From positions 581,132 to 645,131 of the forward strand of contig NZ_SJPY01000001.1 of assembly GCF_007860185.1 (NCBI RefSeq): a stretch of DNA of 64,000 bases, written 5' to 3'. Origin of the DNA: Novipirellula aureliae (lineage in GTDB: Bacteria > Planctomycetota > Planctomycetia > Pirellulales > Pirellulaceae). Below the pieces are notes generated by a model. That model did no database searches. It was not told the DNA's origin and saw nothing but the letters and a program-made list of their open reading frames with translations. The position numbers and the translations under genes are program-made. Of the stretch, positions 36,730-48,242 are shown in pieces. How positions within the stretch are numbered: the stretch's first letter is position 1; every line of letters starts with the position of its first letter.

Positions 36730-38547
36730 TTATAGAGACAATAGGTATTCCACCAAATCATCAATCTGGTCTTCGGATAGTTCCGAAAGTTTACCACGGC
36801 TGTTGCCGTGTTCAAACGTGGTGACAACATCCTTCATCGTTGCAGCGCGGCCATCATGCAGGTAGGGGGCCGTTCGCCATGCTTCGATCAAATGCGGTAC
36901 GTCAACCGGTTTGCCTTCGTCCGGGCCCGACGTAAAGCCAGCGTCATGCAGTCGGAAATCTGTAAACAACGGGGAGGGATGACAGTAGGCACAGCCGACT
37001 TGCTCGAATAGGATTTCTCCCCGCATGGCGGAATCACTTAGGCGGCCATCCACTAAATGGGGACTGGGGATCGGTTTCAGACTCTTCAGGTAAGCGTCGA
37101 TTGCAAGCGCGTCTTCTTCCGGTCGAACTGAAAATTGAATGTGTCGAATTCCAGCGCGAACGGCCGTTTCTGCATCGGCTCGCACACCGAGCCACATCGC
37201 CGGCGGCGTTTTGTGAGCGTAAAGCATCGATTTGACGTTCTTGGGATTGCCAATACCATCATTCATCAAGTCCCAATTCAACCCATCGGTTCGCGCATCG
37301 GGGTGGCAGGTCGCACAGCTCAGCCAATTCTGGAAACAAAGGGCCGAGTCATTGAAGTAGATTTCCCCGAGTCGTTCAGGGGTGATCGCTTGTTGGCTTC
37401 CGAGTTGCAGCAGATCGCTTTCGGTATGTCCAGTCGAAGAAGAGCGAACGATTTCGATTGCATCCGAAAAATAGTTGCCAACATAAACGACTTGCTCATC
37501 AACCACCAACGATCTTGGTCCGATGCCTTTTAGTTTGACCCGCTTTCGTATCTCGGAGAGGAATGACAAGTCGTTGTGGGCATTCAGATGAGCTTCCCCC
37601 TCAAGCTGACTTGATCGAGAAGCTATCTTTGCCGTCAGTGCGGGCAAATCAATGAGTGAAATCTCTTGGTTTCCGGTCGAGGAGACGACCAATGTTTTTC
37701 CATCGGGGGAAAAACCGATTGCCCACGGATTGGAAAACCCTTGTTCGATATCATCTAACAGAACGGTGTACTGGAGCGTCTCACTGGCCACGTCGATGAC
37801 ACTGAGCGCATTGGTGGAAACCCAGCCACGTTCAAGTTGCGTGGTCGGCACGAGAAACCGGGCCATCAGGTGCGTAGCGAATATTTTCTTTCCATCGGGC
37901 GAAATTTCCATGGCACGCATCCCCTCGGCACCGTTCACCAGAGGTAGCGTTTTGACTTCTTGGGTTTCCGTGTTGATGATCGAGACTTGTGAGGCAACGT
38001 ATTCGATATCCGCACGGCCATCCGGGATATGGTTGGCGACAAACAACCGCTTGCCATCGGGCGTCAGTACGGCCGCGATCGGTTCTCGCAAAACGGCAAC
38101 TCTGGCCATCGTCTTACCGGATTCCAGGTCGATGATCGAGACATCGTTGTCGAACCGGTTGCAGACGTACAGCCATTTCCCATCTGGCGACACGATAGGT
38201 GACATCGGCGTGTGCCCGGTCTCGATTTCGCCCACTACCGAACCCGAGTTGACAATCCATACGCGCCCTTCTGGGCCCCCGCCTGCGACGTAAAGCGTTT
38301 CACCGTCGCCAGACATCACCATGTCGGTTGGCTCAGCAGGCAACTCCAGAGAACGACGAATTCCGTTTTCCTGCAAATCGAAATCGATCAACTGCTTTCC
38401 CGTTGATGCGAGAACATACAGCGTTTCTTTGTCGTGGGAAAGGATCAAATCGCTCGGCGACAAATAGTCCTGGGCCGAGACCAATCCAGCCGAGAGAATT
38501 GGCATTGTGAAGGACAATGCCATCACACAGATGGTTACAATTTTCAT
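36730..38547 (-). CDS. Secreted beta-propeller di-heme cytochrome (peroxidase-like)
   Basis: A 605-aa exported protein with signal peptide (MALSFTMPILSAGLVSAQD). The first 350 residues are YVTN/NHL-type beta-propeller blades, each with a DGK or DGE turn such as SPDGKWLYVCNRFDNDVSII and TPDGKRLFVANHIPDG. The last 200 residues carry two c-type heme motifs, CATCH (in NWLSCATCHPDARTDGLNWD) and CAYCH (in FEQVGCAYCHPSPLFTD), with the MauG/cytochrome-c-peroxidase-like HDGRAATMKDVVTTF. Its start is 9 bp from the upstream stop, so it is the last gene of the seven-gene operon. It probably handles electrons in the periplasm. Confidence 0.92.
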   Translation of the reverse strand: MKIVTICVMALSFTMPILSAGLVSAQDYLSPSDLILSHDKETLYVLASTGKQLIDFDLQENGIRRSLELPAEPTDMVMSGDGETLYVAGGGPEGRVWIVNSGSVVGEIETGHTPMSPIVSPDGKWLYVCNRFDNDVSIIDLESGKTMARVAVLREPIAAVLTPDGKRLFVANHIPDGRADIEYVASQVSIINTETQEVKTLPLVNGAEGMRAMEISPDGKKIFATHLMARFLVPTTQLERGWVSTNALSVIDVASETLQYTVLLDDIEQGFSNPWAIGFSPDGKTLVVSSTGNQEISLIDLPALTAKIASRSSQLEGEAHLNAHNDLSFLSEIRKRVKLKGIGPRSLVVDEQVVYVGNYFSDAIEIVRSSSTGHTESDLLQLGSQQAITPERLGEIYFNDSALCFQNWLSCATCHPDARTDGLNWDLMNDGIGNPKNVKSMLYAHKTPPAMWLGVRADAETAVRAGIRHIQFSVRPEEDALAIDAYLKSLKPIPSPHLVDGRLSDSAMRGEILFEQVGCAYCHPSPLFTDFRLHDAGFTSGPDEGKPVDVPHLIEAWRTAPYLHDGRAATMKDVVTTFEHGNSRGKLSELSEDQIDDLVEYLLSL

Positions 38548-38556
38548 GATCGACGT

Positions 38557-41500
38557 TCAATGGGAAACGGTGGGTGGTTTAGCGTCTTGGCTTCGTGGTT
38601 CGATGACCACGCGGAAGCCGACGTTGAAAACCTTCTGGTAGGATTGGTAAGGTAGGCGATAGGAGCTCGTTGCTCGGTGAGGTCGATCACGCCACGAACC
38701 GCCGCGAACCACTTTTCTGGTTTGTAGGTCCAAGGCATTTCGGCCATCGTCGGCCACGTAGGGATATGGATTATAGTCTGACCTCGTCCATTCGGCCACG
38801 TTTCCGTGCATATCGTAAAGTCCCCACGGATTCGGTAGAAATTGACCCGTTCCTTGGGGCGTCAGCGCACCATCGTTAAAGCGGTTGTCACGTGGCACAA
38901 AGTCATTTGTCGGTGATCGACGGTTTGGGGCAACGGGTTGCGGATCGACGCCCCGGACCGCGAGCAATCCGATCGATTGATCGGCAAGGTTGGCGTGCTT
39001 CTCGAATCCCGCTTCGCCAAAGTAAAAGGGCTTGTCACTGCCAGCACGTGCAGCCCATTCCCATTCCGCTTCGCTGGGCAGCGTCATACTCAGGCCCGTC
39101 TTTTCCGACGCCCAATCACAATAGGCCATCGCTTCTTGCCAACTGACGCGGATCACCGGCATCTCAGGATCATTGGCCGGATACCCAGGGTAGATATGAT
39201 CTTTCCATTGCTGGTCAATCGCACCGCTATCATGCTTGGGATCAAAGCGTCTGAATTGTTCATTCGTAATTTCTTTGACCGACATCCAGAATGGCTTGGG
39301 AATTTCGACGACGCTTTGAGGAGCTTCGTCAGCGGCTCCTGCTAGCGATCCCATCACAAAACGTCCCGCGGGAATCCGAGCAAACGTGATCGTCTGGCCA
39401 TCGATTTCTACGTCGCGGGTCGCGGAAGCCATTTTCTGCACCATCGCTTCGCTGAGCGGCCACCCTTCTATCTGGACGGCTTGGTAATCCACTTTTTCTT
39501 TGCTGGGCATTACGAAATCGGGACGCACAATTTCATCTTCCGGCATCCACTCAATATTGTCATCGAGACAGGCAAAAGCCCGCTTCATCTCGATCGTTCT
39601 CTCGGCTTGCACCTTCGTCTTCTCGGAGTAATTTCGTTGTTGCATCCAAGTTGCGTGATACGGAACATTCAAATCGATCCAGGTCACGAGCCGATTCCAG
39701 CCGTCTTCATCTAATTCGACGCCATGGTGTCCTTTTTCGAGCATTTGAATCAACTCGCTGGTGGACGCATGGTATTCCATCGGTCGCATCAGGTGGATGT
39801 CGCTTTCAGGCCCTGGGCGGCGCACATAGGGATGCAGCGCATGATAGGAATTCGCGAACCCCGCATTCCCAGGTGAGTTGTCCTTAAAATTGGGGCGATC
39901 ACTTTCGCTGCCGTCGTGGCATCCGACACAGTGGCGATCGAGTACGGGTTGGACTTCACGCTGGAAACCAAAGCCGTAGGCTCGTTCAATGCCCGCCCAA
40001 GGCTCCAGTTTCTGAGGCATTTTGCGAGCAGCCAAAGCCATGCGTTCAGGTGGCGGGGTGCGAGTCGATTCGTGGCAACCGACACAGGAAAGTCGTTCAC
40101 CTGGCATCGCGGCAAGCCAACTTCGCATGATTTGAAGAGCTTGGCCATTTTCGTCCAATGGCTGAATCGAGATCGGGACGCTGTGAGGTATCGAGAGCAT
40201 TGCCGAACCATCTTCCTCGACCGGGACCGTTCCTAAAACTCGTTTCGTATCCCAACCCCCTTCGATCGCCAACGCATCATGGCTGCCATGCAATCGGTAG
40301 GCATAACCGTAGTTAAACAGTCGCAGCGATTTGACGGTGCCGCGCGGGATGTCTTTCAAGCCGGGGCCTGCGTAGATGTCTTGAATAAACAGAGTAGCGT
40401 CTTCCGCGTCAAAGTCGCGGCGATCAGGAATGATCGGTGGTTGCTCTCGTTTCTTCAGCGGAATTGGCTCGAACAGAAACTTTCGGTCGGATGCCAACTT
40501 GATCATATTGTCGAAGCGGTCCACCAAGTACAGCGACCATCGTTCCGAAGGGTTCAATTGTCCGGAAACCAAAAAGTAGTTTTCGCTCAAAGGATACGGA
40601 TGCAGAAAACGAGGCCACTTGTCTTTCATGTATTGATCGATGATGACCGGTTCGACTTCCTTACCATACCCAGGGATTCGTTGGATCACGCCGTCGGCTT
40701 CGAACTCGCCTTTGGCGGTATCGAAAACGATCAACTCGCCAGCCCGTGAAACGCCGTGATGGCCTGAGCAAATCGCGGCGAATTGCGAAGTTTTTCCAGG
40801 GATCTGCTTGGCATAGAACATCGTATTGGGCCAAAACGAGTTCGATCCATAGATGCTGCGCAAATTCGTCCCATCAGGATTCATTTGCATCAAGATACGA
40901 GTGAAGTAGTGCGCGTTGTCCGTGTATTCCCAGCGGCAGAACATCACGCGGCCATTTTCCATGACCCACGGATACCAATCGTTTTCCTGGTCAAAAGTAA
41001 TCTGACGCATGCCAGTTCCATCGGGATTGATTTCGTACAGATTGCCGACGTAATCACTGCCACCCACACAAGGAACCGCATGCAGAGGCGCTGTGGAACA
41101 GAACACCAATTTTCCGCTTGGTAAATAAGTGGCGCTGTAGTGATCGACCTCAGGCATCACGGTTGTAATCCGCCGCTCGCCGGTCCCGTCGATATTGATC
41201 TCGTGGATTTGCTGTGTATTGCTGTCGATGTCAATTCCGGTGAACAGTAGTTTGTCGGCTTCGTAATGCAGGCTCAAATCCATCACACACTGGCGACTGT
41301 TCGCTGGTTTGAATACGGTCTCGACAGACCTGTTTTCGAGATTCAGGATTCGAAGTTCATCGTCAAAATTGGGTTGCCGTTCGTTGCCTCGGCTGCGCAA
41401 ATAGTTCGCGTTTCCTTGCCAGTTTGCAGGTACGAGAGCATTCTTGCTAGCTCGAAATAGAACTTGATCAAAGTCAACCTCTGGATTGTTGAGCACCAAA

Positions 41501-42117
41501 GCCTTGTAGCGAACGGCTTCGACCTCGGTATCCGAAGCGTTGTCGGATGCCAGCTTGTCAAGCTGCTGGAGATATTCGGTTGCTGGATACGTCGAATACT
41601 GTGCGCCCAAATATTCGATTGCACGTTTGGCGTATTCGATTTTCTTGGCGACAGGCGTGAAGACATAATCGAGGTCTACCGGAGCAATGAAGAGTCCGGC
41701 ACTGGCTCGATTTCCTTGATTCTTGTTTACAAATTGAATTTCAAAAACGTTGCTGCCCTTATTGAGTGGAAGCGAATAGAACGTCTTTTCGACACTTTGT
41801 AGAACGTTTCCATTGAGTCGCAAATTGACCGGACCGCTGACGTTAAAGCCTTGCGTGTAGTCTCGGTCGGCAACCAAGTCCGCGACGATGAATAGATCGC
41901 CACGACGGAGGTTCACGCTATAATTGTGGCTGATGCGCAGGCGGTTGTCGGCTTGCCAGATCTCTGGGTTCGCAGCCGCTTCCGAAAGATTGCCGATCCA
42001 GTCTTGAACGTGGGCGGGGTCTCCGACATAGACGTCACCGAAATGGCAGGTCTGAGCACGCAGTGACGACGCAAACGTAGCGATTAAAGCGAGTGCAATC
42101 AACTTTCGCATAAACAT
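38557..42117 (-). CDS. Secreted propeller/cytochrome/SUMF1 fusion protein
   Basis: An approximately 1,186-aa exported protein (signal KLIALALIATFASSLRAQ). After an N-terminal beta-sandwich and helical spacer come WD40-like PD40 blades (INIDGTGERRITTVMPEVDH, INPDGTGMRQITFDQENDW). Two heme motifs follow: CVGCHESTRTPPPER and HCVGCHDGSESD. The C-terminal 220 residues are an SUMF1/FGE-sulfatase-type domain (FARIPAGRFVMGS, VSWQEAMAYCDWASEKTG, LPSEAEWEWAARAG, DMHGNVAEWTRSDYNPYPY, VVRGGSWRDRPHRATSSYR). Enzymatic FGE cysteines are not obvious, so it is probably a binding domain. The start 42117 is chosen because the longer frame overlaps the aldolase gene. Confidence 0.9.
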   Translation of the reverse strand: MFMRKLIALALIATFASSLRAQTCHFGDVYVGDPAHVQDWIGNLSEAAANPEIWQADNRLRISHNYSVNLRRGDLFIVADLVADRDYTQGFNVSGPVNLRLNGNVLQSVEKTFYSLPLNKGSNVFEIQFVNKNQGNRASAGLFIAPVDLDYVFTPVAKKIEYAKRAIEYLGAQYSTYPATEYLQQLDKLASDNASDTEVEAVRYKALVLNNPEVDFDQVLFRASKNALVPANWQGNANYLRSRGNERQPNFDDELRILNLENRSVETVFKPANSRQCVMDLSLHYEADKLLFTGIDIDSNTQQIHEINIDGTGERRITTVMPEVDHYSATYLPSGKLVFCSTAPLHAVPCVGGSDYVGNLYEINPDGTGMRQITFDQENDWYPWVMENGRVMFCRWEYTDNAHYFTRILMQMNPDGTNLRSIYGSNSFWPNTMFYAKQIPGKTSQFAAICSGHHGVSRAGELIVFDTAKGEFEADGVIQRIPGYGKEVEPVIIDQYMKDKWPRFLHPYPLSENYFLVSGQLNPSERWSLYLVDRFDNMIKLASDRKFLFEPIPLKKREQPPIIPDRRDFDAEDATLFIQDIYAGPGLKDIPRGTVKSLRLFNYGYAYRLHGSHDALAIEGGWDTKRVLGTVPVEEDGSAMLSIPHSVPISIQPLDENGQALQIMRSWLAAMPGERLSCVGCHESTRTPPPERMALAARKMPQKLEPWAGIERAYGFGFQREVQPVLDRHCVGCHDGSESDRPNFKDNSPGNAGFANSYHALHPYVRRPGPESDIHLMRPMEYHASTSELIQMLEKGHHGVELDEDGWNRLVTWIDLNVPYHATWMQQRNYSEKTKVQAERTIEMKRAFACLDDNIEWMPEDEIVRPDFVMPSKEKVDYQAVQIEGWPLSEAMVQKMASATRDVEIDGQTITFARIPAGRFVMGSLAGAADEAPQSVVEIPKPFWMSVKEITNEQFRRFDPKHDSGAIDQQWKDHIYPGYPANDPEMPVIRVSWQEAMAYCDWASEKTGLSMTLPSEAEWEWAARAGSDKPFYFGEAGFEKHANLADQSIGLLAVRGVDPQPVAPNRRSPTNDFVPRDNRFNDGALTPQGTGQFLPNPWGLYDMHGNVAEWTRSDYNPYPYVADDGRNALDLQTRKVVRGGSWRDRPHRATSSYRLPYQSYQKVFNVGFRVVIEPRSQDAKPPTVSH

Positions 42118-42181
42118 CTTTTCATCAGCCTTCAAGTTTGGGGTGGGAAAATACGGATGGAGGCCCTGAGAACCGAAAAAA

Positions 42182-43051
42182 TTAGGAGAGATCTTTATAC
42201 ATTTCAAAGGCTTGGTCGGCCGTCATCCCCTCATGAACGACGCCGCGAACCGCCTTAATCATACTAATCGGATTTTCGGACTGGAACACATTGCGTCCCA
42301 TGTCCACACCCGAAGCACCTTCATTGATTGCGCAGTAAGCGAGTTTCAGAGCATCCTGTTCTTCCAATTTCTTACCTCCAGCAATCACGATCGGAACCGG
42401 GCAGGCAGCGGTAACCTTTTCGAAGTCCTTCTCGCAGTAATAGGTCTTGACGAATGTTGCACCGTTCTCAGCACAAACACGTGTCGCCATTCCGAGATAG
42501 CGAGCATCACGCGTCAATTCCTTTCCGACAGCGGTTACACCAAGTGTTGGAATGCCGTATCGGTTCCCCAGATCAGCGGTGCGGACGAGATTCTCGATCG
42601 TCTTGCCTTCATACTGGCCACCAATCGAAACCATGATCGCCAGCGCCGACGCATTGATGCGTATCGCATCGTCGATACCAAGAATGCACTCATCATTTAG
42701 CTCGTTGAGCACGGTCGTACCGGCTGAAAATCGAAGCGAGATTGGCTTGTTCACTTGCGGCGGGATGCAGCTTCGCAGGACGCCTCGGCTGCACATCAAG
42801 CAATCCGCGTATTCGACGAGCGGTAAAATCCCCAGATCGATGCGTTCGAGTCCAGACGTTGGCCCCATAATGTAGCCGTGGTCAAACGCCAGCATCACGG
42901 TGTTCCCACTACGCGGGTTAAAGATCCGGCTCATTCGGTCCTTGATTCCCCAATCGACGTGATCGAGTCCTTTGAGGAAGAAGGCTTCCTTCTTCACGGG
43001 GATGTTGAGTCCATAATCGTTTGCTTCAATGTTACCGGTAGCATCGGCCAT
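42182..43051 (-). CDS. LsrF-like class I aldolase/thiolase (DhnA family)
   Basis: A 289-aa cytoplasmic (beta/alpha)8 enzyme. It aligns closely by eye with E. coli LsrF, the 3-hydroxy-5-phosphonooxypentane-2,4-dione thiolase of AI-2 breakdown: DWGIKDRMSRIFNP, TVMLAFDHGYIMGPTSGLER, CPVPIVIAGGKKLEEQ and ASGVDMGRNVFQSENP. The Schiff-base lysine is Lys202 in VKTYYCEK. The neighbours do not include lsrK, lsrG or the Lsr transporter. Instead, DhaL and DhaK lie directly upstream. It therefore more likely cleaves a phosphorylated ketose made by the kinase than AI-2. The gap to DhaL is 17 bp. Confidence 0.93.
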   Translation of the reverse strand: MADATGNIEANDYGLNIPVKKEAFFLKGLDHVDWGIKDRMSRIFNPRSGNTVMLAFDHGYIMGPTSGLERIDLGILPLVEYADCLMCSRGVLRSCIPPQVNKPISLRFSAGTTVLNELNDECILGIDDAIRINASALAIMVSIGGQYEGKTIENLVRTADLGNRYGIPTLGVTAVGKELTRDARYLGMATRVCAENGATFVKTYYCEKDFEKVTAACPVPIVIAGGKKLEEQDALKLAYCAINEGASGVDMGRNVFQSENPISMIKAVRGVVHEGMTADQAFEMYKDLS

Positions 43052-43068
43052 GATTTTCCTTTATGTGT

Positions 43069-43695
43069 TTAAACTGCAGCGGTAAAACCGCGTGAAAAAG
43101 CTTCAAAAGTGCAGGCGGTCGACACCGCGCCTGCGTCCAGGTGTCCGATGACTCGCTCGCCAAGATTTCGAGCACGTCCAAATTTCGCAACCATTTCCTT
43201 CGTGTTTTCCGCCCCCTTTGCCGCCGCTTCCGCAGCCGCTTGTAGCATCGTCGGGATGCCGTTTTCCACGTTGGCAACCAGCGCATCGACCGCTGGTTCC
43301 AAGGCGTCCATCATCGTTTTATCTCCGATGCTTGCCTTGGTTTGTTGTTTGACTTTTTCGAGTCCTGCTGAAAACATTGCGGCGGTTTCAGCAGCGTTCA
43401 ATGAATCGCCTTCAACGCCGTCACTCATCCCCAGAAAAAGGGCACCGATCAACGTGCTCGTCGATCCACACGACTCCATCATCGCCGCAAAGCCCATGTC
43501 CCCAAGCATCTTCTTGAGGTTCGTTCCCTCTTGGGCAACTCGGTCAACCGCTGTCATGGCACTGACGATCGCGGTCCCATGGTCGCCGTCGCCTGTTTCT
43601 GCGTCTAAAGCCGAGAACTCACTCGCTCGTTCTTTCAACGAAGCAAGTGCAGTCGCCGTCATCTTCGCAAGTCGCTGGCAATCTAAAAAGGCCAT
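43069..43695 (-). CDS. dhaL: DhaL-type kinase subunit
   Basis: A 208-aa helical-barrel subunit that binds ADP or ATP and magnesium. The conserved DAETGDGDHGTAI motif near residue 31-43 supplies the metal-binding aspartates. The middle GSTSTLIGALFLGM and the C-terminal HLDAGAVSTACTFEAF are also typical. It works with DhaK to phosphorylate dihydroxyacetone or a related ketose. No PTS-type DhaM is nearby, so direct ATP use is likely, as in erythrulose- and apulose-type kinases. The start is the ATG at 43695, 67 bp after the DhaK stop. Confidence 0.93.
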   Translation of the reverse strand: MAFLDCQRLAKMTATALASLKERASEFSALDAETGDGDHGTAIVSAMTAVDRVAQEGTNLKKMLGDMGFAAMMESCGSTSTLIGALFLGMSDGVEGDSLNAAETAAMFSAGLEKVKQQTKASIGDKTMMDALEPAVDALVANVENGIPTMLQAAAEAAAKGAENTKEMVAKFGRARNLGERVIGHLDAGAVSTACTFEAFSRGFTAAV

Positions 43696-43762
43696 CGATT
43701 CATTCCTCTAATCGTTCGCGTATAGCAAAGTTCTAGTGTAAGTTCTTGGATCCGGAAGGCTT

Positions 43763-44782
43763 CTATCGGACCGTCCAGTAGGGTGTGTTGCAGGGGGCCT
43801 TTAGCAGCGGCACATGATCGGCATCTAACTTGCAGAGGATCATTTGGAAGCCGGCCATTTCTTGCACCGTTAAGATCTCGTCGATCAAGCCAGACACAAC
43901 GGTGATTCCTCGACTTTCAAGGACTCGATAGGCTTTGCGGAAAATTAAATTCATTTCCATCAGGGTTGTCGCACCCGTCCCATTGATGATCAACATCGTC
44001 TTGTCACCCGACTTTGCATCGACGGCTGTGATCAACGGCTCGATCATTTTCTGAGCGGTCTCGTCGGCGGAGAGAATCTTGGTACGTCCTCCACCGGCTT
44101 CACCGTGTTGGCCCATGCCAATTTCCATCTCATCGTCCGGCAATTCGGAGATCGCTTGTCCGTTTTGTGGATGCGTGGCCCCCGTCATCGCGACCGCCAA
44201 AGTTGCCATTTGTTTGCTGAATCGCTCGGCAATCTCGTAGACTTCATCGAGTGATTTGCCTGCCTCCGCGGCCGCACCAGCGACTTTAAAAAGCGGAACG
44301 CATCCCGCCAAACCGCGGCGGTCTTCATCGGGAGTCTCTAAACCCGCGCTGATGTCCTCGTGAGTCAACAGCATGCGGACATTTAATCCTTCTCGTTTGG
44401 CCAATTCCATTGCCATGTTCGCACTCATCACGTCGCCGGCGTGGTTGAGCACGACGAGCAAAATGCCTACGTCTCGATGGAGAGCCTTGAGAGCTTCGAG
44501 CAACTTTGGTGCACCGGGGGCCGCGAAAATATCACCCACGACACTGGCGTCGAGCATGCCTTCACCAACAAATCCGCTCAGTGCCGGTTCGTGTCCCGCA
44601 CCGCCGAGAGTGACCAGAGCGACCTTGTCCTCGGATTTCGCATGGGTCCGCACCACAATTTTTTCCGACATCAAGCTCACTTTGTCGGCATAAGCAAGCG
44701 TGTAGCCTTCAAGCAACTCCGCCGTAATATCATTGGGGTCATTCAGGAATTTTTTCATGGTTCGATTTTGTCTGGTCATCAT
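43763..44782 (-). CDS. dhaK: DhaK-type substrate-binding kinase subunit
   Basis: A 339-aa subunit that holds the ketose as a covalent hemiaminal with a histidine. The hallmark GGAGHEPALSGFVG lies at residues 60-75. The substrate-binding His is His226 in EMEIGMGQHGEAG, fully conserved. It also has GDKTMLIINGTGATTLMEMN and ends PYWTVR. The ATG at 44782 or 44779 follows AAGAG and is 10 bp from the VOC stop. The natural substrate need not be dihydroxyacetone: members act on erythrulose and apulose too. Confidence 0.94.
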   Translation of the reverse strand: MMTRQNRTMKKFLNDPNDITAELLEGYTLAYADKVSLMSEKIVVRTHAKSEDKVALVTLGGAGHEPALSGFVGEGMLDASVVGDIFAAPGAPKLLEALKALHRDVGILLVVLNHAGDVMSANMAMELAKREGLNVRMLLTHEDISAGLETPDEDRRGLAGCVPLFKVAGAAAEAGKSLDEVYEIAERFSKQMATLAVAMTGATHPQNGQAISELPDDEMEIGMGQHGEAGGGRTKILSADETAQKMIEPLITAVDAKSGDKTMLIINGTGATTLMEMNLIFRKAYRVLESRGITVVSGLIDEILTVQEMAGFQMILCKLDADHVPLLKAPCNTPYWTVR

Positions 44783-44792
44783 TTGCTCTTGA

Positions 44793-45119
44793 TTAGGAAT
44801 TGGATTCTTCGATTTGCAGAAACTCGATTGGCACACCTTCCTCGATCACAAACGCAACCGTCACGCCGGGCATCGCCGTAAAAGGCTCAACCAGCATTTC
44901 TGCGTTTTTCAATTCCGCAGCCAAGTCGTCGACGCGATAGGCAATATGAGGCATCGCTTTCAGAATTTCTGGCAACCCGCTGTGATCTTCGAACCGCAGC
45001 CACTCAATCCGATTGCGACTCTGATCGGGATCCGACACATGGACTCCCGCGTCCTTCAAGTACGTCATGTTCTCATCCAAGCGGTCCGTGGGGATGCCGA
45101 TGTGATGCAACGTTCGCAT
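44793..45119 (-). CDS. VOC-family protein (glyoxalase-like)
   Basis: A 108-aa single vicinal-oxygen-chelate module, with the N-terminal HHIGIPTDRLDENMTYLKDA and the final FVIEEGVPIEFLQIEE. The His near the start and the late Glu are usual metal ligands. It could isomerise, lyse or epimerise a small oxidised sugar. Overlap of spacing (10 bp to dhaK) supports co-transcription. Its exact reaction is not predictable. Confidence 0.85.
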   Translation of the reverse strand: MRTLHHIGIPTDRLDENMTYLKDAGVHVSDPDQSRNRIEWLRFEDHSGLPEILKAMPHIAYRVDDLAAELKNAEMLVEPFTAMPGVTVAFVIEEGVPIEFLQIEESNS

Positions 45120-45204
45120 AGTCCTACTCCAAAACTTTCAACAGAATGGATCTTGGCAAAGCTCCCTGAATAGCCCCGATCCCAAAAAAAACCGATGTAA
45201 CGTC

Positions 45205-45879
45205 CTAAAAGACAACCGACTTGTTCGTGAACTCGAGCGCGTTACCATAGTGAGGCGATGCGTATTCCGAAACGATTGCTCCCTCGGGGCCTGCAATCAT
45301 AAAATGTCGAGCTTGCAAGCGGTTGAGCGAGCCCACTTCGCCCTGTTGAAGCGGTGTGCAATGCCGAGCCGTGATCCCACCCGCATTCAATTGACTTTCG
45401 GGAAGTTTGATCGGCAGATCCTCGGTCGCTTCGTCGTCGCTAAATGCATAAACCATGCCGTGACGCACATGCCAGGATTCCATTTTGGCCGGACCTTCGG
45501 GAACGGGCCGATGACAATGTTCGACAATCATTTGGCCAGGCAACAAAAAGATCTCATGGGCAAAGTACATGTGTTCGGTATCGTTGACCCAAAAGATGCC
45601 GCCCATGCCGACGTTCAAAAAGTCGTCTTGCGCGAAATCGCTGGTCCAAAACTGATCGCTTCGCAACAAGGGTGAGATCGGGTAGCCAAACCGGTTCATC
45701 ATCTCATAGTAGGCCGCAAACGCTTTCTTCTTATTGAAGGTGTCGCCATCGTAAAAGTCATTGCGCGTGTAGTTCTTGCGTTCACCGCCGACGGCCCAGG
45801 TTCCAGCCGCGAGCGTACCGGCTACGACGCTCGATGTTTTCAGAAGGGTTCGACGGGTGACAGGATCAGATTTGCTCAT
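45205..45879 (-). CDS. Tat-exported cupin, D-lyxose isomerase-like
   Basis: A 224-aa protein that begins with a twin-arginine leader (TRRTLLKTSSVVAGTLAAG). The mature part is a cupin: LLPGQMIVEHCHRPVPEGP contains an HxH pair with a following Glu (PAKMESWHV), and a later His is in ARHFMIAGPEGAIVSEYAS. The pattern recalls the metal site of D-lyxose/D-mannose isomerases, and the closing EYAS matches their cupin end. Residue spacing does not fully match, so the name is tentative. The ATG at 45879 is preferred to a GTG at 45891. It is the first gene of the operon, opposite the IclR gene. Confidence 0.75.
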   Translation of the reverse strand: MSKSDPVTRRTLLKTSSVVAGTLAAGTWAVGGERKNYTRNDFYDGDTFNKKKAFAAYYEMMNRFGYPISPLLRSDQFWTSDFAQDDFLNVGMGGIFWVNDTEHMYFAHEIFLLPGQMIVEHCHRPVPEGPAKMESWHVRHGMVYAFSDDEATEDLPIKLPESQLNAGGITARHCTPLQQGEVGSLNRLQARHFMIAGPEGAIVSEYASPHYGNALEFTNKSVVF

Positions 45880-45987
45880 CGCTTGGCTCACTCTTTTGTT
45901 CTTGTGGCGGTGCGGATTGAAGTTGTCAGGCAGAAACCAATTGCCTCACTCTCCCGGCGAAACCCGCGAGCGTGAAGGGGCGTTCGG

Positions 45988-46010
45988 TATATGGAACTAT
46001 GTCCCATATA
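45988..46010. promoter_or_regulatory. Inverted repeat, probable IclR operator
   Basis: TATATGG at 45988 and CCATATA at 46004 flank 9 bp. The central TGGAACTATGTCCCA is a near-palindrome resembling IclR-family sites (TGGAA...TTCCA). It lies about 110 bp before the operon's first start and 230 bp before the IclR start. Confidence 0.6.
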
Positions 46011-46170
46011 AGCACAGTTGCAAGAGAACGTCAAGCTTTTCCTCGAACCAAATCGACCGAGAAATAGTCCATAGCGAGAGTTTATTGAACGTTGAGAGCA
46101 GGGAAAGACGCTTCAGCAACCAAACGGGGATTCGGGAGACTCCAGACTTCCTGGGGCTTTTCAAAGAACG

Positions 46171-46184
46171 TTCTACATATAGAA
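46171..46184. promoter_or_regulatory. Second inverted repeat near IclR gene
   Basis: TTCTA-CATA-TAGAA, about 58 bp ahead of the IclR start. It could be an autoregulatory site. Confidence 0.35.
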
Positions 46185-46241
46185 TAACCTTGGCGTCTTG
46201 GTTGAGTTGGGAAGCACCCCTAGAAATAAGTGAAAAAAAAT

Positions 46242-47006
46242 ATGCAAATCGATTCCCGATACCAGGTCCCCAATCTCGAACGTGCATTGGTGATGATGGA
46301 GTACCTACTCGATCATCCCGATGGCTTGACGCTGTCGGAGTTGACGGTCGCTCTAAAACTACCCAAAAACAGTGTTTTTCGTATCAGCAATACGTTGTTG
46401 GCACATGGTTATTTGAACCGCGATGCGACGGAAAAACGCTTTACGCTCAGTCGCAAGTTGCTGACGATGGGGCAGATGAGTTTGGCCGAGAAACCGATCG
46501 TTCCTACAGCGATCGACATCATGCAGAAGTGTCGTGATGAGGTCCATGAAACCGTCCTTATCGGTACGCTCGTCGAGTCCCAATTTGTGGTGATGGAACA
46601 GGTTCTCGGTTCACACCCGTTTAAATTCTCTATCGACTTGGGCGTCCAGTTAGAAATCCATGTCTCCGCCCCTGGCAAAGCGATGTTGGCGTACCTTCCT
46701 GAGCGTGAAGTCGAGAAGCGGTTGAAGGGCTATCGCTTCGTCCGATACAACGAGCGGACGATCACGTCCAAACGAGCTTTGATGAAAGAGTTGCGTGCGA
46801 TTCGCGAGTGTGGATTTGGCTTGGACCGCGGCGAGCAGTTGCATGGGATTCATTGTGTCAGTGCGCCCATCTTCAATCGCCACCAGCGTCCGATTGCAGC
46901 GATCTGGGTCACCGGGCCAATCGACCGACTTCCCAAAGAGGCGTTCCCCGGTCTCGGTAGAACGATGCGATCCTACGCAGACCAAATCTCCGAGCGACTG
47001 TTGTAG
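46242..47006 (+). CDS. IclR-family transcriptional regulator
   Basis: A 254-aa regulator. The winged helix spans LERALVMMEYLLDHPDGLTL with LPKNSVFRISNTLLAHGYL. The effector domain has HVSAPGKAMLAYLPERE and RGEQLHGIHCVSAPIFN, the family's usual signature. The reading frame extends 4 codons to a GTG at 46230; the ATG at 46242 is taken. It diverges from the seven-gene operon, and so most likely senses the pathway's substrate or an intermediate. Confidence 0.94.
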   Translation: MQIDSRYQVPNLERALVMMEYLLDHPDGLTLSELTVALKLPKNSVFRISNTLLAHGYLNRDATEKRFTLSRKLLTMGQMSLAEKPIVPTAIDIMQKCRDEVHETVLIGTLVESQFVVMEQVLGSHPFKFSIDLGVQLEIHVSAPGKAMLAYLPEREVEKRLKGYRFVRYNERTITSKRALMKELRAIRECGFGLDRGEQLHGIHCVSAPIFNRHQRPIAAIWVTGPIDRLPKEAFPGLGRTMRSYADQISERLL

Positions 47007-47081: not shown

Positions 47082-47441
47082 TCACTTTGGATCGGCTCGG
47101 TAAAACACGGCTAGCCAGATCGTTGGCTCATCGGGGGCCGTCCATTCAACACGATGTTTGCGATGGGCTGGGATCAGGACATGATCGCCGGGTTTTAAGT
47201 GAAGCGGGTCATTGTCGTTCTCAAAAATCAGCTTGGCTTCGCCGTGGAGCACGACCACCCATTCGTGTTCTTGCTGATCGTACCAAAATCCTTCAGGGCT
47301 AACGTGGCCGTGGGAAACGATGCGTTCGATGCGGGCATGCTGATCCTCAGCAATGACCTCCATCAACTCTTCGGGAAACGATTGCGGCAGGTCCGAAAAA
47401 AGATTTTTGGGTTTCTTACTGCCACGTTTCATGTTTCTCAT
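47082..47441 (-). CDS. Small cupin-domain protein
   Basis: A 119-aa single cupin: HGHVSPEGFWYDQQEHEWVVV is motif 1 (His and Glu ligands) and HLKPGDHVLIPAHRKHRV is motif 2. Families of this kind include dimethylsulfoniopropionate lyase-like and sugar-phosphate-binding cupins; no function is assigned. It starts 18 bp after carbonic anhydrase on the same strand. Confidence 0.88.
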   Translation of the reverse strand: MRNMKRGSKKPKNLFSDLPQSFPEELMEVIAEDQHARIERIVSHGHVSPEGFWYDQQEHEWVVVLHGEAKLIFENDNDPLHLKPGDHVLIPAHRKHRVEWTAPDEPTIWLAVFYRADPK

Positions 47442-47459
47442 ATCGGGGAAGTCACCTAG

Positions 47460-48242
47460 TCAATCGAGCCAGCGGACGCGGCCGTCGAGGTCGTAGATGG
47501 CGCCGACGATTTTGACCGCATGCGTTTCGGAAACACGCTTCAGTTCAGGGCTCAGCTTAAGAGCCCGCTGAGAACAGCGAGTGTTCTTGTGGACGGCCGT
47601 GTCGATGTCCGTTGACGGCCCTACATCGGGTTCGCCATCATGGTGCTCGCGGATCTCATCGTGAATGTGTTGAACGAGCGATGTTAGTTCACGAGGCCCT
47701 CCACTTGACAAATGCTGCATGGCCGCCGTCACCGCACCGCATTTTTCATGACCAAGCACAACGACCAAATGGGTATCGAGATTGGCAACCGCATACTCGA
47801 TGCTGGCCAATACATCGTCATCGACAATATTGCCAGCGACACGGATGACAAACAAATCACCAAGTCCTTCGTCAAAAATCAATTCGGGTGTCACGCGCGA
47901 ATCGCTACAGCCCAGAATGGTTGCGAAAGGCTTTTGTCCGCTTTTAAGTTTGCTTCGCCAATCGGGATCTTCATGAGGATGTTCTGATTTGCCACTCAAG
48001 AATCGCTTGTTGCCTTCCTTGAGCATCGCCAACGCAACTTCAGCCGAAACATTTTCGCCGGACTTCGCTGCTTTGTGCTCCACAGGGTTCGTTTCGGACT
48101 CCTTCTCTGGCAGAGCGGTCGGTGGAGCGGCGACTAGCGGGGCGAGACCAGACACCAACAGCATTGCGGTAAGGAAAGCGAAACGATTTAGGTGACCGAT
48201 ATGGGGCGCTCGACAAACACTCGGGAGGCAGCAATAGTTCAT
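47460..48242 (-). CDS. Beta-class carbonic anhydrase, exported
   Basis: A 260-aa zinc enzyme that interconverts CO2 and bicarbonate. An N-terminal hydrophobic leader (RFAFLTAMLLVSGLAPLVAA) suggests a periplasmic enzyme, which is unusual but known for beta-CAs. Zinc ligands are the Cys and Asp in ATILGCSDSRVTPELIFDE, and His and Cys in VVLGHEKCGAVTAAM. The segment GDLFVIRVAGNIV is conserved. A Glu-rich linker follows the signal. The start at 48242 fits; upstream starts are absent. Confidence 0.93.
   Translation of the reverse strand: MNYCCLPSVCRAPHIGHLNRFAFLTAMLLVSGLAPLVAAPPTALPEKESETNPVEHKAAKSGENVSAEVALAMLKEGNKRFLSGKSEHPHEDPDWRSKLKSGQKPFATILGCSDSRVTPELIFDEGLGDLFVIRVAGNIVDDDVLASIEYAVANLDTHLVVVLGHEKCGAVTAAMQHLSSGGPRELTSLVQHIHDEIREHHDGEPDVGPSTDIDTAVHKNTRCSQRALKLSPELKRVSETHAVKIVGAIYDLDGRVRWLD

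What the first reader, a model, noticed from the sequence alone, without database searches (positions are those of the whole stretch)
36730..47006. Seven-gene operon joining DhaKL kinase to an LsrF-like aldolase and secreted heme proteins
The genes read in one direction with gaps of 9-85 bp: Tat-exported cupin, VOC protein, DhaK, DhaL, LsrF-like aldolase, a ~1,186-aa propeller/cytochrome/SUMF1 protein and a propeller di-heme protein, diverging from an IclR gene. In known AI-2 breakdown, LsrF works with the FGGY kinase LsrK and with LsrG, neither of which is here. A DhaKL kinase followed by an LsrF-type lyase suggests a different route: isomerise, phosphorylate at C1 or C4, then cleave to DHAP (or a related triose phosphate) and a C2-C3 fragment. 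A pentulose or tetrulose substrate is my inference, as is the role of the two heme proteins as periplasmic oxidation or binding steps.
Basis: partly seen in the sequence, partly recalled or inferred. Interest (0 to 1): 0.78.

Follow-up and report, generated by a model that had tools for sequence, protein, structure and literature searches.

The report
Sugar-splitting operon with hydrazine-synthase-like proteins
A planctomycete carries an operon, found in patches across several bacterial phyla, that appears to prepare a sugar-like molecule outside the cell with an isomerase and unusual heme proteins and then phosphorylate and split it inside with a coenzyme A-dependent enzyme; the gene set is real, but its substrate is not known.

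Summary
Seven minus-strand genes (gaps 9-85 bp) diverge from an IclR gene. Two palindromes in the shared promoter region are conserved in three congeneric genomes.

The set is a conserved cassette. In 80 loci chosen by their LsrF-like gene, 62 have DhaK within 10 kb, always on the same strand; of those, 39 have the cupin, 35 HZS-alpha-like, 31 VOC. Hosts span six phyla. This LsrF type is rare: 13 of 392 genomes of the phylum.

1. The cupin is an exported D-lyxose-isomerase-like protein.
2. The two heme proteins resemble hydrazine synthase alpha and fused beta-gamma, but lack its key residues.
3. The aldolase passes the curated LsrF thiolase model and keeps the catalytic lysine, and a few relatives add phosphotransbutyrylase/butyrate kinase genes. 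This favours CoA-dependent cleavage to DHAP plus an acyl-CoA.
4. DhaK belongs to a subfamily with an altered active-site signature.

AI-2 breakdown is less likely: no LuxS in 20 cassette genomes examined, no close LsrK.

The substrate is unproven. My favoured model is oxidation and isomerisation outside the cell to a 2,4-diketo sugar, then phosphorylation and thiolysis.

The parts
45205..45891 (-). Exported (Tat) cupin, D-lyxose-isomerase-like sugar isomerase; GTG start as listed, or ATG at 45879
   Evidence: Profile of 36 rows hits only two PDB sequences up to E=1, both D-lyxose isomerases (7nzo E=3.6e-24, 2y0o 7e-22); invariant E124,H125,H127,K136,E138,H196; all 36 N-termini look exported by eye
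44793..45119 (-). VOC (glyoxalase-I/epimerase-like) protein, probable cytoplasmic isomerase or epimerase
   Evidence: Profile A2 best hits 2qh0/3hdp (E=3e-5); invariant H6,E39,H58,E99 in 29 rows
43763..44758 (-). DhaK-type kinase subunit, divergent subfamily (LNH and GQHGE signature); ORF extends to a GTG at 44836
   Evidence: Dak1 E=1.9e-102; below the DhaK equivalog cut-off (305.1 of 406.25 bits); K104 equivalent is Leu in 71 of 72, Q before the catalytic His in 72 of 72
43069..43695 (-). DhaL-type ADP/ATP subunit
   Evidence: Dak2 E=4.4e-39, GDGDHG motif; no DhaM in 20 of 20 cassette genomes examined, so ATP is the likely donor
42182..43051 (-). LsrF-type class I aldolase/thiolase
   Evidence: NF006081 442 bits against cut-off 297; E. 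coli LsrF 3gkf E=1.5e-106; the Lys that is Ala in 4p2v aligns with K202, kept in 83 of 83
38557..42117 (-). HZS-alpha-like protein (propeller, HZS_alpha domain, two CxxCH) fused to a SUMF1 domain; Sec-type signal by eye; 1,186 aa
   Evidence: PF18582 E=2.4e-31, PF03781 E=9e-44; profile of 18 rows hits only 5c2v_A at E<=0.001 (1.3e-17); both CxxCH in 38 of 38 rows over 1000 aa
36730..38547 (-). HZS beta-gamma-fusion-like protein: propeller plus di-heme MauG/CCP-like part; Sec-type signal by eye
   Evidence: Best NCBIfam hit NF052342 133 bits (cut-off 1250); 5c2v_B 7e-30, 5c2v_C 1e-20; a surface-layer propeller, 1l0q, scores slightly better on the propeller half
46230..47006 (+). Divergent IclR-family regulator; GTG start as listed, or ATG at 46242
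   Evidence: IclR_C E=2.5e-36; IclR within 10 kb of LsrF in 16 of 62 DhaK loci
45989..46009 (.). Probable operator palindrome ATATGGaactatgtCCcATAT
   Evidence: Conserved in three congeneric genomes, the window's included, while much of the region diverges; only copy in the genome at up to 2 mismatches
46171..46184 (.). Second palindrome TTCTAcataTAGAA, IclR-proximal
   Evidence: Conserved, with small changes in CA13, in the same three genomes

Best explanation
It is a catabolic cassette for a sugar or sugar-derived compound, controlled by the divergent IclR protein. Outside the cytoplasm a D-lyxose-isomerase-like cupin turns an aldose-type compound into a hydroxymethyl ketone (HOCH2-CO-R), and a hydrazine-synthase-like heme pair carries out a redox step, most simply oxidation of C4 to give a 2,4-diketo (1-hydroxy-2,4-dione) sugar. 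Inside, the VOC protein shifts or epimerises at the acidic C3. A specialised ATP-dependent DhaKL phosphorylates the terminal CH2OH. LsrF cleaves the 1-phospho-2,4-diketone with coenzyme A into DHAP and an acyl-CoA, as E. coli LsrF does to P-HPD (known biochemistry, recalled). In some lineages Ptb/Buk turns the acyl-CoA into acid plus ATP. Shown here: gene content, families, conservation, export signals, catalytic residues. Inferred: every reaction. My estimates: kinase then LsrF in one pathway about 0.85; CoA-dependent cleavage about 0.6; extracytoplasmic isomerisation about 0.5; heme pair as a sugar oxidase about 0.35; a mannose/lyxose-configured substrate about 0.2.
For: DhaK and LsrF linked on one strand in 62 of 80 loci; of those 62, DhaL in 61, cupin 39, HZS-alpha 35, VOC 31, IclR 16, HZS-beta-gamma 11. 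LsrF passes the thiolase equivalog model, with D57, H58, K202 and R253 in 83 of 83. Ptb (+ACT) lies inside the operon in L013 and L016, a Ptb-Buk fusion directly after LsrF in L048, and an annotated buk about 5 kb upstream of LsrF, same strand, in the Aureibacter plasmid. The cupin profile hits only D-lyxose isomerases in the PDB. DhaK subfamily signature in 71-72 of 72, against K/Y/I in a Klebsiella glycerone kinase and K in the four PDB alignments shown. CcsBA cytochrome c biogenesis genes sit in some Bacteroidota cassettes, fitting c-type cytochromes. Mannose-active families lie beside or inside some cassettes: GH92 (L039/L043), GH130 (L018, L093), GH38 (L028).
Against: No biochemistry. By BLAST, Ptb/Buk occurs in only 3 of the 80 loci (L013, L016, L048; a weak further match in L086) plus one plasmid, and not in the window; the Ptb parts score below their curated cut-offs. 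Mannosidase genes are common in Bacteroidales (recalled), and GH106 sits by one cassette (L057). HZS-alpha is near LsrF in 35 of 62 DhaK loci, VOC in 31 and beta-gamma in 11, so none is obligatory at the locus (contig ends hide some; in the 29 loci with 7 kb on both sides: 22, 12 and 8). 18 of 80 LsrF loci have no DhaK nearby. HZS_alpha genes also occur outside the cassette (3 in the window's genome and 14 in CA13, the cassette copies included; 2 in G011, a family member without this LsrF at 1e-60), so HZS-like proteins are not tied to this pathway. No transporter is in the window's operon.
Confidence: 0.45

Rival explanations
1. LsrK/LsrG-free breakdown of AI-2 (DPD) or the same 1-deoxypentosone from other sources: cupin or VOC isomerises DPD to HPD, DhaKL phosphorylates HPD, LsrF gives DHAP + acetyl-CoA.
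For: LsrF passes the AI-2 thiolase model; HPD has the HOCH2-CO end that a DhaK needs (chemistry, inference); Ptb-type enzymes could take the acyl-CoA. LsrG-like ABM proteins exist in 8 of 20 cassette genomes: up to 41% identity in G587, and in the window genome 37% over 67 aa, about 250 kb from the cassette.
Against: LuxS in 0 of 20 cassette genomes examined; the LsrK query gives only 24-32% FGGY kinases in 11 of 20, none in the window genome at 1e-20; no ABC transporter in the window's operon or annotated near LsrF in the two annotated cassettes (others not searched for one); no need for a heme redox complex or an aldose isomerase. Scavenging of others' AI-2 is not excluded.
Confidence: 0.18
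2. One reading: DhaKL phosphorylates a simple tetrulose or pentulose and LsrF acts as an ordinary retro-aldolase giving DHAP plus an aldehyde.
For: The cupin is aldose-ketose-isomerase-like; LsrF belongs to the wider DeoC/class I aldolase superfamily.
Against: LsrF scores as the thiolase, not as an FBP aldolase (442 against 114 bits); Ptb/Buk neighbours in a few lineages suggest an acyl-CoA product; no role for the heme pair.
Confidence: 0.25
3. The heme pair does nitrogen chemistry as in anammox and the sugar genes are a chance neighbour.
For: Alpha and beta-gamma homology to hydrazine synthase.
Against: Key residues are absent: no Tyr at the alpha-Tyr591 place, Gly at gamma-Cys165, Trp/Ile/Ser at gamma-His144 (my reading; residue roles from passages of PMC12758564 and PMC12607021). 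Co-conservation with the sugar genes in many loci.
Confidence: 0.03

Closest known systems
Lsr AI-2 degradation (LsrK-LsrG-LsrF), enterobacteria
   Same: LsrF similarity (54-55% identity to E. coli and Klebsiella LsrF) above the curated cut-off; same expected DHAP + acyl-CoA logic
   Different: DhaKL instead of FGGY LsrK, VOC and exported isomerase instead of LsrG, IclR instead of LsrR, no ABC transporter in the operon, no LuxS in the genome; adds the HZS-like pair
Dihydroxyacetone kinase DhaKL(M)
   Same: Dak1 + Dak2 subunits, catalytic His and Asp kept
   Different: Lys104 to Leu, Tyr to His, GIHGEP to GQHGE(A/G); below equivalog cut-offs; no DhaM found in 20 genomes; linked to LsrF
Hydrazine synthase (alpha, beta-gamma) of anammox bacteria and the HZS-like clades I-IV of Hagglund et al. 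2025 (PMC12758564, abstract and passages seen)
   Same: alpha-like and fused beta-gamma-like genes together, two CxxCH in each, shared WDL..D.G...KN motif in the gamma part
   Different: SUMF1 domain on alpha; Tyr591, Cys165 and His144 not kept; an own conserved Cys before the first gamma CxxCH; metabolic context is sugar-like. Whether this pair is their clade IV was not tested
D-lyxose isomerase (7nzo, 2y0o)
   Same: Cupin with the pattern EHxH...KxE...H
   Different: Exported by Tat or lipoprotein/Sec-type signals; lies in an operon with DhaKL/LsrF

Membership tests
LsrF (3-hydroxy-5-phosphonooxypentane-2,4-dione thiolase) | Score above curated equivalog cut-off | tested here: met
   442 bits against 297
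LsrF (3-hydroxy-5-phosphonooxypentane-2,4-dione thiolase) | Catalytic lysine (number 203 recalled; Ala in 4p2v) | tested here: met
   aligned K202, 83 of 83
LsrF (3-hydroxy-5-phosphonooxypentane-2,4-dione thiolase) | Transfers an acyl group to CoA | not testable with these tools
   needs enzyme assay; Ptb/Buk neighbours in a few lineages are indirect support
Lsr AI-2 system | LsrK, LsrG and an ABC transporter (LsrACDB) with LsrF | tested here: not met
   none in the window's operon; no LsrK at 1e-20 in the window genome; one weak LsrG-like hit 250 kb away. LsrACDB was not searched genome-wide
Lsr AI-2 system | LuxS (AI-2 maker) in the same genome | tested here: not met
   0 of 20; AI-2 users need not make it
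Dihydroxyacetone kinase | DhaK/DhaL equivalog cut-offs | tested here: not met
   305.1 of 406.25 and 127 of 138.3 bits
Dihydroxyacetone kinase | Catalytic His, His56, Asp109 and GDGDHG motif | tested here: met
   H244 72/72, H82 71/72, D135 71/72; GDGDHG kept in at least 90% of 63 DhaL rows; residue roles recalled
Hydrazine synthase | alpha, beta, gamma homologues together | tested here: met
Hydrazine synthase | alpha-Tyr591, gamma-Cys165, gamma-His144 | tested here: not met
   my reading with residue roles from PMC12758564 passages
D-lyxose isomerase | Sequence family and conserved metal-type ligands | tested here: met
   profile; invariant residues
D-lyxose isomerase | Aldose-ketose isomerase activity | not testable with these tools

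The most novel reading that the evidence does not exclude
A previously undescribed way to break down sugars: extracytoplasmic oxidation by a hydrazine-synthase-like heme complex and isomerisation by an exported lyxose-isomerase-like cupin make a 2,4-diketo sugar, which a dedicated DhaKL phosphorylates and an LsrF thiolase splits with coenzyme A into DHAP and a hydroxyacyl-CoA, the ATP being regained by Ptb/Buk. It would give non-anammox hydrazine-synthase relatives a first metabolic role, and would make AI-2 breakdown a special case of a wider thiolytic sugar route.
Probability: 0.25. Interest if true: 0.9.

Novelty: new variant of a known kind. Interest (0 to 1): 0.7.

Why it matters
If right, it is a sugar-splitting route that uses coenzyme A thiolysis instead of aldol cleavage, with LsrF serving outside quorum sensing. 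It would also suggest what some hydrazine-synthase-like heme proteins in non-anammox bacteria do, a question raised in recent work: PMC10732223 suggests a wider enzyme family with other substrates, and PMC12758564 finds homologues without the key residues (passages of both seen). The cassette occurs in a Parabacteroides distasonis plasmid record, a human gut species, so a laboratory test looks feasible. Nine library searches listed no paper that, by title and abstract, joins these genes; most listed papers were not opened.

Tried and rejected

I expected the LsrF tree to separate cassette LsrF cleanly from Lsr-operon LsrF. It did not. 84 rows (64 with DhaK, 20 without) form a supported clade (100/99) apart from the three proteobacterial rows (100/97), but five planctomycete cassette rows (L115, L116, L119, L120, L122) fall outside, three planctomycete rows without DhaK (L118, L123, L124) join the proteobacterial ones, and the Lacticaseibacillus row is a long branch. 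I therefore make no claim on which pathway is older.

A wider IclR regulon was sought to find a transporter: the larger operator occurs once in the genome at up to 2 mismatches. Promoter and terminator scans gave no more than shuffles.

I considered AI-2 scavenging, plain aldolase action and nitrogen chemistry (see rivals). The chorismatase-like gene of Bacteroidota cassettes (FkbO/Hyg5 domain) gave no substrate idea that I trust. A search for DhaK residue papers listed nothing useful, so the roles of Lys104, His56 and Asp109 are recalled.

Samples and dropped rows. The 80 loci are the best 80 of 345 and were chosen by LsrF similarity, so percentages describe that sample; several contigs end inside the cassette. 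In one search the subset with at least 7 kb on both sides and DhaK is 29 loci: DhaL 29, HZS-alpha 22, cupin 21, VOC 12, IclR 11, HZS-beta-gamma 8. Cupin alignment: 35 of 40 cluster members kept by length, plus the window. VOC: 28 of 29 plus the window. HZS-alpha: rows over 1000 aa; 18 rows in the profile, one computed reference (the minus-strand copy of L045) left out. Beta-gamma: 14 of 16 rows, two short ones dropped. The one DhaK exception is L026, in a contig where the frame looks disturbed. The 20 genomes are the window's and 19 that I picked from cassette loci; many are incomplete MAGs.
Full report
What is there. The window lies in G000 (7.27 Mb), whose family is that of a MAG named Pirellulaceae bacterium PLA7 (G104, the contig of L014). 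On the minus strand are genes for an exported cupin, a VOC protein, DhaK, DhaL, an LsrF-type aldolase, a 1,186-aa heme/SUMF1 protein and a propeller di-heme protein, with an IclR gene diverging. Gaps are 85, 34, 67, 17, 64 and 9 bp with the start codons I prefer.

It is a cassette. A scan of the species-genome collection with the LsrF protein alone found 345 relatives and kept the best 80 as loci. Profile searches of their open frames found DhaK within 10 kb in 62 of 80, always on the same strand as LsrF; of those 62, DhaL in 61, cupin 39, HZS-alpha-like 35, VOC 31, IclR 16 and HZS-beta-gamma-like 11. None of the 18 loci without DhaK had cupin, VOC, IclR or beta-gamma; 4 had HZS-alpha and 3 DhaL (some contigs are cut). 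Hosts of cassette loci, as named in the records (mostly MAGs), include Planctomycetota, Verrucomicrobiota, Kiritimatiellota, Lentisphaerota, Bacteroidota and Acidobacteriota. Gene order is shuffled between lineages, which I take as a sign of joint function. This LsrF type is patchy: 6 of 199 genomes of the family at 1e-60, 13 of 392 of the phylum at 1e-100, 3 of 395 of the class of L057 (Bacteroidota) at 1e-105, the query's own or centre genome counted each time; not all of these have DhaK beside it. Two plasmid records carry the cassette, Aureibacter tunicatorum pAT4 and a Parabacteroides distasonis plasmid.

Cupin. P0007 has no Pfam cupin match even at E=10, but the profile of 36 rows finds only two PDB sequences up to E=1, both D-lyxose isomerases (3.6e-24 and 7e-22). 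The EHxH...KxE...H pattern is invariant. By eye all 36 N-termini look exported: my simple scan found RR motifs in 16, lipobox-like motifs in 18, both in 5 and neither in 7, and those 7 start with hydrophobic stretches. An exported sugar isomerase is unusual in my knowledge.

Kinase. DhaK lies below the curated cut-offs. At the place of E. coli Lys104 (numbering visible in the 4lrx row) it has Leu in 71 of 72 cassette sequences, His replaces Tyr two places on in 71 of 72, and Gln precedes the catalytic His in 72 of 72; a Klebsiella glycerone kinase has K, Y and I there, and the four PDB alignments shown have K. The signature also holds in the four outlying planctomycete rows added. In plasmids, only the two cassette records exceed 60% identity to this DhaK; the other 23 listed of 47 are about 35-40%. 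No DhaM was found in 20 of 20 cassette genomes.

LsrF. It passes the equivalog model for 3-hydroxy-5-phosphonooxypentane-2,4-dione thiolase (442 against 297 bits) and scores only 114 on the archaeal FBP aldolase model. The lysine that is alanine in 4p2v is K202 here, kept in 83 of 83.

Acyl-CoA clue. Inside the operons of L013 and L016 are a phosphotransbutyrylase-like gene and an ACT-domain gene; directly after LsrF in L048 is a 708-aa Ptb-Buk fusion (butyrate kinase part above its cut-off, 343 against 289 bits; Ptb parts below theirs); in the Aureibacter plasmid an annotated buk lies about 5 kb upstream of LsrF on the same strand, with TonB, a hypothetical, DUF1097, VOC, DhaK and DhaL genes between. 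In the genome of L061 a Ptb-Buk fusion followed by an ACT gene lies on another, 7.5-kb contig. So three lineages join a CoA-to-acid, ATP-yielding step to this set. It is 3 of 80 loci by BLAST (plus a weak match in L086) and one plasmid, and the window genome has only a distant relative of butyrate kinase elsewhere (54 bits), so this is a pointer, not proof.

Heme pair. P0001's best NCBIfam hit is the hydrazine synthase beta-gamma fusion (133 bits, cut-off 1250), and it aligns to 5c2v_B and 5c2v_C; a surface-layer propeller scores slightly better on the propeller half. P0002 has the HZS_alpha domain, and a profile of 18 relatives finds only 5c2v_A (1.3e-17), aligning both CxxCH; 38 of 38 alpha-like rows keep both motifs. 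From passages of PMC12758564 and PMC12607021, hydrazine synthase uses alpha-Tyr591, gamma-Cys165 and gamma-His144. Here the place four after the first alpha CxxCH His is not Tyr in any of the 38 rows (four rows, L055, L059, L065, L067, have Tyr one place further), the Cys165 place is Gly, and the His144 place is Trp, Ile or Ser; instead a Cys lies shortly before the first gamma CxxCH in all 14 rows (my reading of the alignments). So it is not a hydrazine synthase, though it is a relative. PMC12758564 already describes co-located alpha/beta-gamma homologues in clades I-IV, with Aquisphaera, Novipirellula, Thermogutta and Anaerohalosphaera in clade IV; the words aldolase, dihydroxyacetone, cupin, SUMF and sugar do not occur in its main text (figures and supplements not seen). 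The link to DhaKL/LsrF seems new. HZS_alpha genes are also found elsewhere, including in a family member without this LsrF.

Other neighbours. Mannose-active enzymes: GH92 between LsrF and HZS-alpha in L039/L043, GH130 after LsrF in L018 and in P. distasonis, GH38 after DhaK in L028; GH106 follows one (L057). With a lyxose/mannose-type isomerase this hints at mannose-configured sugars, weakly, since such genes are common in Bacteroidales (recalled). Possible transporters: SSF (L018), MFS (L093), DUF1097 membrane protein (L013, L015, L045, L061, L092). CcsBA cytochrome c biogenesis genes occur in L018, L060, L088, L093, L125, L126.

AI-2 test. LuxS 0 of 20 genomes. The LsrK query (413-aa Klebsiella fragment) gives only 24-32% FGGY kinases in 11 of 20 genomes, none in the window genome. 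LsrG-like ABM proteins occur in 8 of 20, from a marginal match up to 41% identity in G587; the window's lies about 250 kb from the cassette, G587's on another contig, the rest were not checked for linkage. This lowers, but does not exclude, an AI-2 scavenging role.

Regulation. Two palindromes in the IclR-cupin gap are conserved in three congeneric genomes; the larger one is unique in the genome at up to 2 mismatches.

Mechanism. The simplest scheme that uses every conserved part is the one in Best explanation. The kinase-then-LsrF order is well supported by linkage. Thiolysis is supported by family and, in a few lineages, by Ptb/Buk. Extracytoplasmic isomerisation and oxidation are inferred from export signals and families. 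The substrate is open.

Limits. One LsrF-chosen sample, MAG contigs, no structures, no assays, and no names for the G-handle genomes.

Noticed in passing
L057:5981-7108, L056, L060, L078, L088, L018, L092:13092-14279, L093: A chorismatase-like (FkbO/Hyg5, RidA-type) gene sits in Bacteroidota cassettes; a remote relative (22%) with only a RidA-type domain is next to the planctomycete cassette L119. Role unknown.
   Followed up: partly
L069, L074, L079, L081: In rumen planctomycetes LsrF is parted from DhaKL by a 733-768-aa protein without Pfam match (one tested); in L069 and L081 genes that by eye look like nusA, infB and rbfA follow.
   Followed up: no
L096:7001-14864: In a Klebsiella record the lsr operon lies about 3.4 kb from glycerone kinase and dhaM/dhaL genes; that kinase has the ordinary DhaK signature.
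   Followed up: partly
L007:14807-18001 and L012:16622-20242: Congeners carry a second HZS-alpha/SUMF1-like gene (43-46% identical) directly after the cassette; the window does not.
   Followed up: no
L051, L053, L062, L064, L068, L071, L075, L077, L084, L089, L090: Planctomycetaceae MAG loci have LsrF without DhaK found nearby (some contigs are short), so LsrF may have another partner there.
   Followed up: no
window 47082-48242: Beyond IclR: a small cupin gene (nif11-type model, below cut-off) and a carbonic anhydrase gene; no link to the cassette was seen or tested.
   Followed up: no
L094, L095: Proteobacterial LsrF genes sit with FGGY kinase, ABC sugar transporter and SDR or class II aldolase genes rather than a plain lsr operon: LsrF may serve several pathways.
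   Followed up: no
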